Origin: a virus
Strand: one strand, 5' to 3'
IMG/VR virus record: IMGVR_UViG_3300035701_000049
Coordinates: 1-49,570 of that record
Length of the DNA stretch: 49,570 bases
Shown here: positions 2,329 to 31,011 of the stretch, one piece after another
Layout: each line of letters begins with the position of its first letter
Numbering within the stretch: position 1 is the first letter of the stretch
Program-made: the position numbers and the translations under genes
The notes under the pieces: generated by a model
The model's database searches: none
What the model was told of the DNA's origin: nothing
What the model saw: the letters and a program-made list of their open reading frames with translations, nothing else

Positions 2329-2997
2329 ATGGAACAAAGAACCGTCCTGTGGGGACGACAAAAGAAATTCGTTGAAGCTTATTTGTCTTATGGCTGTAAA
2401 GACGTTTTTAAAGCATATAAGGAAGCGGGGTATAAAGCAAGGGGAGATAATGGAGTTGAATCAGCCTCACGATTATTAGCACAACCACAGATTCAAGCTG
2501 AAATTCAAAGAAGAATAGATGAGGTTGAAAAAAAGGCCAATATCTCTCTTCTTGATCTTGTTGAACGTCTAAAGAAAATCTGTACATTTGATATACGTGA
2601 CCTTTATACTGTTGATGGAAATCTTCGTCCAGTACATGAACTAAATGATAAAGCTGTTTTAATGGTTGAAAATATTGAAATAACAGAAACTGAAGGGGGT
2701 AAATATGAAGGAACAACAACAAAAGTTAAACTATGGAAAATTAAAGAAGCCTATGAAACTCTTATTAAAATATTAGGTGGAGGTAGTTCCACTCTTAAAG
2801 TTACTGTTGATGGTGAGGTGAAACATGATGTTGAAGTTAAAGGTGGAGTATTGATGATTCCAGGAGCGAGATCATTAGCTGATTGGACAACATTAATTGG
2901 GGAAGTAAACCGAAACAGGGATATAAAAAGACTTGCTGTTGAAGCAAGGATATTAGAGGCTGATCAACTGCCTATTGAGGAAGAGGAAGATGAGTAA
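2329..2997 (+). CDS. terS: Terminase small subunit
   Basis: The 222-residue product matches the Terminase_2-type small subunit. The N-terminal helix-turn-helix region (WGRQKKFVEAYLSYGCKDVF, then AGYKARGDNGVESASRLLAQPQIQAEIQRRIDE, residues about 8-70) recognises packaging-initiation DNA, followed by helical oligomerisation and tail segments. It should form a ring that delivers phage DNA to the large subunit. The ATG has GGGAG 5 nt upstream. In typical phages the large subunit follows directly; here an IscB gene and one small gene intervene. The C-terminus is very acidic (EEEEDE). Confidence 0.88.
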   Translation: MEQRTVLWGRQKKFVEAYLSYGCKDVFKAYKEAGYKARGDNGVESASRLLAQPQIQAEIQRRIDEVEKKANISLLDLVERLKKICTFDIRDLYTVDGNLRPVHELNDKAVLMVENIEITETEGGKYEGTTTKVKLWKIKEAYETLIKILGGGSSTLKVTVDGEVKHDVEVKGGVLMIPGARSLADWTTLIGEVNRNRDIKRLAVEARILEADQLPIEEEEDE

Positions 2998-3246
2998 ACT
3001 ACTCCTTTCTTTTAAGGTATGTTAGGTAACTAACATGGTAACAGTTGACTAGGGGGCTTATTTATGCAGAAGATTATGTTAGAGTTAAAGAACACACCTA
3101 CAGATGTACAATTACTCCAAGTCTGTAGCTCTGTAAGTTCTGTATTAAACAAGGTTGAAAGACCTAGTGTACAGGACAAAGTACTGGACATAATCAATCC
3201 CGAAGGAGTTCATTCTCAACATACAGAGAGGTCATTAAAACCATTA
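2998..3246 (+). ncRNA. Candidate HEARO / omega-RNA of the IscB nuclease
   Basis: About 250 nt separate the small terminase stop from the first codons that resemble IscB. They contain: a 7-bp hairpin with a GTAA (GNRA) tetraloop at 3019-3036; a 7-bp stem CTACAGA/TCTGTAG at 3098-3104 and 3122-3128; a 7-bp stem CTCTGTA/TACAGAG at 3129-3135 and 3222-3228 that begins immediately after it; and, nested inside, AGGTT-GAAA-GACCT at 3152-3165. IscB families are known to have such RNAs just 5' of or overlapping the gene. The element may start after ATGA at 2990-2993. Helices were read by eye, not computed. Confidence 0.42.
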
Positions 3247-4407
3247 GTGTATGTCCTTTCAAAGGAAGGAAACCCTTTGATGCCTTGTACTCAGGCAAAA
3301 GCAAATCGAATGGTAAAAAAAGGAAGTTGTAAAATTATTAAAAGATTTCCATTTACTATCCAACTTAATTTTGAATGTGAGAATAAAACACAAGAAGTAA
3401 CACTTGGTATTGATTCAGGATATGAAAATATTGGATTTAGTGCTGTATCTGAAACAAAAGAATTAATATCTGGAACAGTTAAATTAGATGGAAGAACATC
3501 AAAAAGAATACAAGAAAAATCTATGTACCGAAAATTAAGAAGAAACAGACTTTGGTATAGGGAGCCTAGATTTTTAAATAGAACTAAACCTGAGGGATGG
3601 TTACCCCCAAGTATTCAAAGGAGATATGATACTCATTTAAATATAATTAATAGACTGAAAAAAATTCTTCCAATTTCTCAAGTTATTGTTGAAGTAGCAA
3701 ATTTTGATATTCAGAAGATTATGAATCCAGATATTCAAGGAAAAGAATATCAACAAGGGTCTTTATATGGTTATCAGAATATGAGAAATTATCTTATGGC
3801 AAGGGAGAAAGGAAGATGCCAACTTTGTAAAAAAATTTTTGAAAAAGGACAACCTTCCCATATACATCATTGTAAACCAAGAAAAGAAATTGGAAGTAAC
3901 AGACCAGAGAATCTTGCTATTTTACACAAACCTTGTCATGAAAAACTACACAAACAAGGTTTGAAATTATCAAAACCTAAAAGTTATAAACCTAATACTT
4001 TTATGTCCATAATTCATAAACGATTCTGGAATGATATTCCTGATTTAAAGGTTGTTTATGGATATGAGACCTTTATAAAAAGAAATGAATTAAATCTTGG
4101 AAAATTCCATAGGAATGATGCTTTTGTAATAGCAAATGGTACAATTCAAAAAAGATTCAGATCATGGAATGTGAAACAGAAACATAGACATAATCGAGCA
4201 ATACAAATGAATAGAAAAGGATTTAAACCTTCTATAAGAACATCAAGGTATAAAATTCAACCAAATGATTTAGTAAAGATACAGGGACTATGGAAAGAAA
4301 CATCTGGTATTCATTGTAAAGGGACAAGACTTTTAGTGGATAAAAAGTCAATTAATATTAAACGAGTAGCTTCTATTTATAATTTTGGTGGGTTATCATG
4401 GAATTAA
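3064..4407 (+). CDS. iscB: IscB-like RNA-guided nuclease (RuvC plus HNH)
   Basis: The 447-residue product carries the IscB layout: a PLMP domain (VYVLSKEGNPLMP, about 62-105); RuvC-I with Asp117 (LGIDSGYENIG); an arginine-rich bridge helix (about 155-180); RuvC-II with Glu210 (VIVEVANF); an HNH domain from Cys252 with a His266-Ile-His-His cluster; and RuvC-III with His349 and Asp352 (HRNDAF). All expected catalytic residues are present. The first 61 residues do not resemble IscB and overlap the predicted RNA. ATG 3064 has AGGGGG upstream, but a GTG at 3247 would give a family-like N-terminus. It lies between the terminase genes and could act as a homing-type element. Confidence 0.9.
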   Translation: MQKIMLELKNTPTDVQLLQVCSSVSSVLNKVERPSVQDKVLDIINPEGVHSQHTERSLKPLVYVLSKEGNPLMPCTQAKANRMVKKGSCKIIKRFPFTIQLNFECENKTQEVTLGIDSGYENIGFSAVSETKELISGTVKLDGRTSKRIQEKSMYRKLRRNRLWYREPRFLNRTKPEGWLPPSIQRRYDTHLNIINRLKKILPISQVIVEVANFDIQKIMNPDIQGKEYQQGSLYGYQNMRNYLMAREKGRCQLCKKIFEKGQPSHIHHCKPRKEIGSNRPENLAILHKPCHEKLHKQGLKLSKPKSYKPNTFMSIIHKRFWNDIPDLKVVYGYETFIKRNELNLGKFHRNDAFVIANGTIQKRFRSWNVKQKHRHNRAIQMNRKGFKPSIRTSRYKIQPNDLVKIQGLWKETSGIHCKGTRLLVDKKSINIKRVASIYNFGGLSWN

Positions 4408-4420
4408 AAAACAACGAAGA

Positions 4421-4714
4421 ATGAGAAAGTATCTGTACTTTCGCATTACTGGAACCTGTGAAGGAAAACAATTGTCTTATGAGGATTGTTTATCCTATAT
4501 TGAGTCTTTCCAATTTTTGGAAAGACGAATACCAACAGCCATTGTCAAAAATGATAAACCAAAACATGGTCATTCTGAATGGGCTGTTTGGGTTTGGAAG
4601 AAAGAACATGCTGAATCGTTTCCAAACAGTGAAGAATTAAAGGGGGACATAAGAATGTCCTTCTTTGGTTTTAAGGAGTTATATGTTCAAGATAAAAGAA
4701 ACAGAAAAATCTAA
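4421..4714 (+). CDS. Hypothetical protein between IscB and large terminase
   Basis: The 97-residue product begins MRKYLYFRITG and continues with mixed helix and strand, including SYEDCLSYIESFQFLERRIP and a WAVWVWKKEHAESFP segment. No family is recognised. The ribosome binding site at this ATG is weak; the frame extends upstream into the IscB 3' end through a TTG at 4385. The gene overlaps the large terminase start by about 30 nt, a normal phage arrangement. The weak initiation context would be explained if IscB insertion separated it from its original leader. Confidence 0.55.
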   Translation: MRKYLYFRITGTCEGKQLSYEDCLSYIESFQFLERRIPTAIVKNDKPKHGHSEWAVWVWKKEHAESFPNSEELKGDIRMSFFGFKELYVQDKRNRKI

Positions 4715-6113
4715 TTATGTCTGGTACCCGATGGCAGGAAGTCAGCTCGCTTTTCTTACCTGTCCTTTACCAGAAGTATTATATGAGGGAACAAGAGGAA
4801 ACGGAAAAACCATTTGTTTACTAGCTGATTTTGCACAGCATGTAGGACAAGGTTATGGTCCTTCCTGGAGAGGTATTCTTTTTAGGAAAAGTTATAAAGA
4901 ATTAGAAAAAGATATCATTCCTAAAAGTATGGCGTTTTATAAACAAGTTTTTGGTGAGAAAGCAAAATGGAATGGTGGAGATAAAACATGGACTTGGGAT
5001 ACTGGGGAAAAACTATATTTAGCATACTATGAAAGAGTAGAAGATTATTGGAATTATCATGGATCTGAATTTCCCTGGATTGGATGGGAAGAGCTAACAA
5101 CTTGGGGATTTTCAGATGGTTATGATGATATGAAAACTATCTGGAGATCTCCTAATCCTGCTGTCCCTAGAAAATACAGAGCAACAACTAATCCATTAGG
5201 TCCAGGACATAACTGGGTTAAAAAGCACTTTGCAATAGGGGAAGTTCAGCCAGGAGAGATTCTCACAGACAAACAAGGATTACAAAGAACACACATTCAT
5301 GGTGAATTGTGGGAAAATCCTTTCCTTATGGAAAATGATCCTCAATATTTTCAACAATTATTAGCAACAAAGGACCCAAATAAAAGAAAAGCCTGGCTTG
5401 AAGGTAGATGGGATATAGTTGCAGGCGGTGCTTTAGATGATCTTTGGGATGCTGATGTTCATGTGATACCTGCTTTTTCAATTCCTTCAACTTGGCATGT
5501 AGATAGATCATTTGACTGGGGTTCATCAAAGCCTTTTTCAGTTGGGTGGTGGGCAGAATCAGACGGAAGTGCTGTTCTCATTTATGACAAAAAATCTGGA
5601 AAGAATGTATTTCAATCATTTCCTCCAAAAACTTTATTTAGGATAGCAGAATGGTATGGATGGAATGGGAAAGAAAATCAAGGATTAAGAATGACTTCTG
5701 CTGAAATAGCACGGAAAATTCATGATGCAGAAATGAGACTCCCTTATCATGTTCATCCAGGTCCTGCTGATCCTTCAATATTTAAAGTTGAAGATGGTCA
5801 TTGTATTGCTGATGAAATGTCAATACAAGGAGTTACTTGGGAGAGAGGAGATAATAGTCCAGGAAGTAGGGCAAATGGATTAGAGGTATTGAGAAACAGA
5901 CTTGAGGCATCAACGCAAAGACCTATGGAAAATCCAGGGATATTTATATTTGAAAATTGTAGACATTTTATGAGAACAGTTCCAAACCTTCCAAGAGACA
6001 CTAAAAAGATGGACGATATAGACACAAGTGCAGAAGATCATGTGTACGACGATTCACGTTACCGTGTTCTTTATAGGAAACAAGAAGGAGCAATGGTGCA
6101 CGCTAGAATATGA
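4683..6113 (+). CDS. terL: Terminase large subunit (packaging ATPase and nuclease)
   Basis: The start at 4683 is supported by AAGGAG 4 nt upstream; the product is 476 residues. The N-terminal ATPase domain has a Walker A GTRGNGKT at 36-43 and a Walker B region ending in Glu136-Glu137 (FPWIGWEE). The C-terminal part is an RNase H-like nuclease: an acidic strand around DRSFDWGSS, a middle HPGPADPSIF segment, and the closing DDIDTSAEDHVYDD typical of large terminases. It docks on the portal, pumps DNA and cuts it. It runs on the plus strand, opposite to the tail genes. Its stop overlaps the next start (ATGA). Confidence 0.95.
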   Translation: MFKIKETEKSNYVWYPMAGSQLAFLTCPLPEVLYEGTRGNGKTICLLADFAQHVGQGYGPSWRGILFRKSYKELEKDIIPKSMAFYKQVFGEKAKWNGGDKTWTWDTGEKLYLAYYERVEDYWNYHGSEFPWIGWEELTTWGFSDGYDDMKTIWRSPNPAVPRKYRATTNPLGPGHNWVKKHFAIGEVQPGEILTDKQGLQRTHIHGELWENPFLMENDPQYFQQLLATKDPNKRKAWLEGRWDIVAGGALDDLWDADVHVIPAFSIPSTWHVDRSFDWGSSKPFSVGWWAESDGSAVLIYDKKSGKNVFQSFPPKTLFRIAEWYGWNGKENQGLRMTSAEIARKIHDAEMRLPYHVHPGPADPSIFKVEDGHCIADEMSIQGVTWERGDNSPGSRANGLEVLRNRLEASTQRPMENPGIFIFENCRHFMRTVPNLPRDTKKMDDIDTSAEDHVYDDSRYRVLYRKQEGAMVHARI

Positions 6114-30936: not shown

Positions 30937-30951
30937 AAAATTCTCCTTAAG

Positions 30952-31011
30952 AAAAAAAATGGGAGGCAGGGGTGTCGGGGGAGCCCTTTTCGGCTTACGC
31001 CTATCCTCCCA
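30952..31011 (-). terminator. Rho-independent terminator after the major tail protein gene
   Basis: TGGGAGG (minus strand, complement of 31,005-31,011) pairs with CCTCCCA (complement of 30,960-30,966) and is followed by eight U residues. Inside is a small GGC-GTAA-GCC hairpin. It would reduce read-through from the very highly expressed tail protein into the chaperone genes. Confidence 0.85.

What the first reader, a model, noticed from the sequence alone, without database searches (positions are those of the whole stretch)
2998..4407. IscB nuclease with its own candidate omega-RNA between the terminase genes
The sequence shows a complete PLMP/RuvC/HNH protein with intact catalytic residues and, 5' to its conserved part, about 250 nt with four possible helices, two of them capped by GNRA tetraloops and two sharing an exact junction. 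IscB with a guide RNA is known in bacteria; a copy at the packaging locus of a phage could act as a homing endonuclease against related phages, whose terminase genes would be the natural target.
Basis: partly seen in the sequence, partly recalled or inferred. Interest (0 to 1): 0.8.

Follow-up and report, generated by a model that had tools for sequence, protein, structure and literature searches.

The report
Phage IscB with terminase-derived guide
A phage carries, between its two DNA-packaging genes, a small Cas9-ancestor nuclease (IscB) with its own guide RNA, whose guide is copied from the end of the neighbouring packaging gene, so it is probably a selfish element that cuts and converts related phages lacking it.

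Summary
Rfam HEARO (the omega-RNA family) matches 2994-3215 above its curated cut-off. The next ORF is an intact IscB (NCBIfam guided_IscB, 297 bits against a cut-off of 175). The guide is the 16 nt before 2994, which is the 3' end of terS, not terL. In 14 related omega-RNAs, 44 of 64 base pairs show changes on both sides. Two Desulfamplus copies are 98% identical, yet their guides differ, and identity starts exactly at scaffold base 1. An IscB-less copy of the same family has empty sister sites reading guide|ATAAA, which supports the guide/target-motif (TAM) layout. The window record and the relatives of the same IscB subfamily lack a TnpA transposase, and the window also lacks the right-end hairpin of transposon-type copies. 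The best reading is a stand-alone, RNA-guided, homing-type element. Homing into related phages is inferred: no exact empty terS site was found, and the right end is unresolved. Two additions: (i) a C-to-A change at scaffold base 3 supplies terS's stop codon; (ii) the IscB frame stays open through the omega-RNA in this subfamily. IscB and HEARO are known; this is a variant.

The parts
2329..2997 (+). terS, terminase small subunit (222 aa), the gene that supplies the guide; its stop TAA is 2995-2997, inside the omega-RNA
   Evidence: Pfam Terminase_2 71.2 bits; PHROG 51
2978..2993 (+). guide (last ~16 nt of terS: AGGAAGAGGAAGATGA)
   Evidence: lies directly 5' of HEARO model position 1; in relatives the element identity starts exactly at scaffold base 1 and the bases before it differ. 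The 16-nt length is from knowledge of OgeuIscB, not tested
2994..3215 (+). omega-RNA scaffold (HEARO)
   Evidence: RF02033 84.7 bits, full model 1-211; covariation
2996..2996 (+). scaffold base 3, A where the 13 relatives have C; breaks one pair of the first helix and makes the terS stop codon TAA
   Evidence: alignment, pair 3-64, codons
3064..3246 (+). in-frame extension of the IscB reading frame inside the omega-RNA (61 codons from ATGCAG)
   Evidence: open in about 30 relatives; ATG-to-core length always a multiple of 3
3247..4407 (+). IscB core protein (386 aa, GTG start; PLMP, RuvC, HNH)
4419..4447 (+). imperfect hairpin just after IscB; possible remnant of a right end, not the canonical right-end hairpin
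   Evidence: fold z -2.45; canonical motif not found
4421..4714 (+). 97-aa ORF between IscB and terL, no relatives found; may be flank or partly element
4683..6113 (+). terL, terminase large subunit
   Evidence: Pfam Terminase_6N; many relatives up to 52% identical

Best explanation
This is a stand-alone, transposase-less IscB element inserted at the end of terS. Shown: an intact IscB; an intact HEARO omega-RNA; a scaffold that, in relatives, starts exactly where the element starts; a guide that is therefore the last bases of terS. Inferred: transcription from the terminase operon makes the omega-RNA; IscB loaded with it cuts the uninterrupted terS of a related phage, where the same 16 bases are followed by a TAM (in this subfamily ATAAA, here probably the last codon and stop GA|A TAA A). 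Repair from the carrier genome copies the element across. The carrier is spared because its guide sequence is followed by scaffold, not by the TAM.
For: HEARO and IscB matches and covariation. In sister phage lineages terS abuts terL with no IscB between. Desulfamplus L220/L221: bodies 98.4% identical, guides 5 of 16, so the guide is taken from each site. IscB-less copies with the same omega-RNA end at ATAAA, and the empty allele of one, in two sister genomes, reads guide|ATAAA with nothing lost. L082: joining guide|ATAAA reopens the interrupted NUDIX frame (joined by eye). Staphylococcus phages: three sites for elements about 81-92% identical, exact 1545- and 1546-bp inserts against empty sisters, no transposase seen nearby. 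No Y1 TnpA in the window record nor beside IscB in the relatives of its subfamily; no right-end hairpin in the window. IscB is lower in G+C (about 30%) than its surroundings (about 37%).
Against: No empty terS site of a close relative was found, so target and TAM are extrapolated. The right end is unresolved (4402, 4407 or about 4450). The scaffold change makes GTAAA follow the guide in the carrier, closer to ATAAA than the usual GTCAA, which could invite self-cutting. One pair of the first helix is lost. I found no report of homing activity for any IscB in the papers I could search.
Confidence: 0.62

Rival explanations
1. It is an ISC (IS200/IS605-type) transposon copy that landed by TnpA supplied in trans; the IscB only protects the copy by re-cutting the excised site, as proposed for TnpB.
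For: Relatives of the same subfamily keep an IS605-like right-end hairpin followed by ATAAA (L082, L182, L234), L220 carries what looks like a TnpA C-terminal remnant, and IscB-less MITE-like copies exist in Desulfamplus.
Against: The window has no TnpA and no canonical right-end hairpin, so TnpA could hardly move it now.
Confidence: 0.2
2. It is a resident weapon of the phage: IscB uses the terS guide to cut DNA of co-infecting related phages (exclusion), without being a mobile element any more.
For: Same cutting prediction; the terS stop kept by the scaffold change suggests long co-existence with the host gene.
Against: Not separable from homing by sequence; a guide from the terS end would only hit very close relatives.
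Confidence: 0.1
3. It is a decaying, inactive remnant.
For: One broken pair in the first helix, lowest HEARO score of the four closest elements, missing right end.
Against: Open reading frame, all catalytic residues and nearly all RNA pairs kept.
Confidence: 0.08

Closest known systems
IscB / OMEGA systems (OgeuIscB, PDB 7XHT, 7UTN)
   Same: Protein family, catalytic residues, HEARO omega-RNA upstream, guide 5' of the scaffold
   Different: Shorter (386 aa core), in a phage structural locus, no transposase, reading frame open through the omega-RNA
HEARO in Staphylococcus Silviavirus phages (PMC13346280; L089)
   Same: Omega-RNA plus HNH/IscB protein in a phage, with empty sisters
   Different: Very distant IscB branch, different site; the paper lists HEARO but the passages I read propose no homing
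ISC transposons with TnpA (L206, L207, L208, L210, L213)
   Same: Related IscB protein
   Different: They have TnpA next to IscB and no open frame through the omega-RNA
Free-standing phage HNH homing endonucleases (intronless homing)
   Same: Inserted beside the gene it would target; works the same way if the model is right
   Different: Target chosen by RNA, not by protein-DNA contacts

Membership tests
IscB | PLMP N-terminus, split RuvC with HNH insertion, intact catalytic residues | tested here: met
IscB | HEARO omega-RNA directly 5' of the gene | tested here: met
IscB | Guide is flank sequence at the scaffold's 5' end | tested here: met
   in relatives; for the window by homology of the boundary
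IscB | TAM 3' of the target | tested here: inconclusive
   ATAAA in relatives; no empty site for the window
IscB | RNA-guided DNA cleavage | not testable with these tools
   needs bench work
ISC / IS200-IS605 transposon | Y1 TnpA gene | tested here: not met
   none in the window record (record may be a fragment)
ISC / IS200-IS605 transposon | Subterminal right-end hairpin | tested here: not met
   an unlike imperfect hairpin at 4419-4447
Homing endonuclease element | Empty allele in relatives at the same place | tested here: inconclusive
   gene order empty in distant relatives; exact empty site not found
Homing endonuclease element | Super-Mendelian inheritance in mixed infection | not testable with these tools
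   needs bench work

The most novel reading that the evidence does not exclude
Phages host a transposase-free lineage of IscB that spreads as an RNA-guided homing element: the guide is renewed from each insertion site, the TAM ATAAA can overlap a stop codon so that insertion at a gene's end is nearly harmless (here the scaffold itself supplies the stop), and the omega-RNA doubles as translated 5' coding sequence of its own nuclease.
Probability: 0.45. Interest if true: 0.75.

Novelty: new variant of a known kind. Interest (0 to 1): 0.58.

Why it matters
IscB is the ancestor of Cas9, and what it does in nature is mostly discussed in terms of transposons. A phage lineage without transposase, with a guide taken from an essential packaging gene, would make RNA-guided homing directly testable. 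It would also give compact nucleases with a predicted TAM.

Tried and rejected
A first right boundary (4396|4397) with four of four joined frames open was rejected: the window's last residues SWN align to VWN in L082 and L184, so that stretch belongs to the element. Exact search for the guide region in viral contigs: none. Relatives of the 97-aa ORF to place the right end: none. L083's portal relatives as empty sites: mostly 60-70% identical, but their C-terminal ends are too diverged to show the junction. Amino-acid conservation of the 61-residue extension: no excess of third-position change inside the RNA (p 0.71), and AlphaFold leaves residues 1-59 at pLDDT about 28. So the frame is kept but the sequence seems to be set by the RNA.

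Full report
1. What is there. The window is a 49,570-base virus record, linear, with no named host. terS (2329-2997) and terL (4683-6113) are separated by an IscB gene and a 97-aa ORF without relatives. Rfam HEARO matches 2994-3215 over its full length at 84.7 bits, just above the gathering score of 83. The three closest viral relatives score 96-118. The protein matches RRXRR, HNH and the NCBIfam equivalog guided_IscB, and it aligns to OgeuIscB with the RuvC and HNH catalytic residues in place. IscB relatives at about 48-68% identity are found in some 25 viral contigs and in several bacterial and archaeal genomes.

2. The RNA is under selection. In 14 omega-RNAs of the subfamily, 64 pairs are predicted. 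94.8% of cells pair, 44 pairs have changes on both sides, and sliding or shuffling the partners destroys this. In the first helix the window alone breaks pair 3-64, because scaffold base 3 is A instead of C. That A creates the TAA that ends terS (GAT GAG TAA). With the usual C, terS would read on for several codons to the next in-frame TAA. Sequence shows this directly; that it was selected is inference.

3. Where the element begins and where the guide comes from. Two Desulfamplus copies (L220, L221) are 98.4% identical over 1336 bases from scaffold base 1, while the 16 bases before it match at 5 positions and the 60 before it at 18. So the left end is scaffold base 1 and the guide is local sequence. 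In the window those bases are the end of terS. Many relatives also sit in or at the end of a gene read in the same direction.

4. The target motif. Desulfamplus genomes carry IscB-less copies: guide, the same omega-RNA, a right-end hairpin, then ATAAA. For one of them (L275) two sister genomes have the empty site, and it reads guide|ATAAA without loss or duplication. The same motif follows the right-end hairpin in L082, L182, L234 and others, though not in all (L190, L195). In L082, joining guide and ATAAA reopens the interrupted NUDIX gene; the join was read by eye. By extension the empty window site would read GAT GA|A TAA A, with the terS stop inside the TAM, and TerS would end in Asp-Glu-stop in both alleles. 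This is inference; no empty terS was found. terS ends of relatives are likewise acidic.

5. How it moves. No Y1 transposase is in the window record, nor beside IscB in any of the subfamily's viral records tested. A weak, partial, distant hit occurs in one (G020), and all five records of the other type tested have a match, four of them a full-length TnpA beside IscB. The canonical right-end hairpin is missing from the window. Staphylococcus phages give an independent case from a very distant IscB branch: elements about 81-92% identical at three sites, with exact inserts against many empty sisters. Together these favour spread by guided cutting and recombination for phage copies without a right-end hairpin, but TnpA-borne ancestry is likely.

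6. An unexpected feature. From a conserved ATGCAG inside the omega-RNA to the core start of IscB, the frame is open in about 30 relatives. The 20 measured lengths (174-207, eight distinct values) are all multiples of three, while lengths upstream of that ATG fall in all three classes. There is no codon-position signal inside the RNA, and the extension is predicted disordered (overall model quality is modest, mean pLDDT 62). So translation through the omega-RNA is likely, but its amino acids do not appear to matter. The tree shows the trait clustered but not in a single clade. I did not find this described in the papers searched; the founding HEARO and IscB papers were not held, so novelty is unverified.

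7. Limits. The right end, TAM, cutting and inheritance for this element are not shown. The record may be incomplete.

Noticed in passing
window 3064-3246: The IscB reading frame stays open through the 3' part of the omega-RNA in about 30 relatives, with indels only in multiples of three.
   Followed up: partly
L272, L274, L276-L279, L273, L275: IscB-less, MITE-like omega-RNA elements with different guides in Desulfamplus genomes, ending at ATAAA; could act with IscB in trans.
   Followed up: partly
L089 2713-4258: In Silviavirus, the insert's right end carries a recoded start of the resolvase gene (TNSKKK kept, AGT changed to TCG), as if to escape its own guide.
   Followed up: no
window 30945-31011, - strand: Rfam int-alpA RNA, 38.1 bits against a gathering score of 35.8.
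   Followed up: no
L185 from 4001: IscB frame reads on for 759 aa into another gene; possible fusion.
   Followed up: no
L014 7032-7454: Permuted / alphaproteobacterial tmRNA on a viral contig.
   Followed up: no
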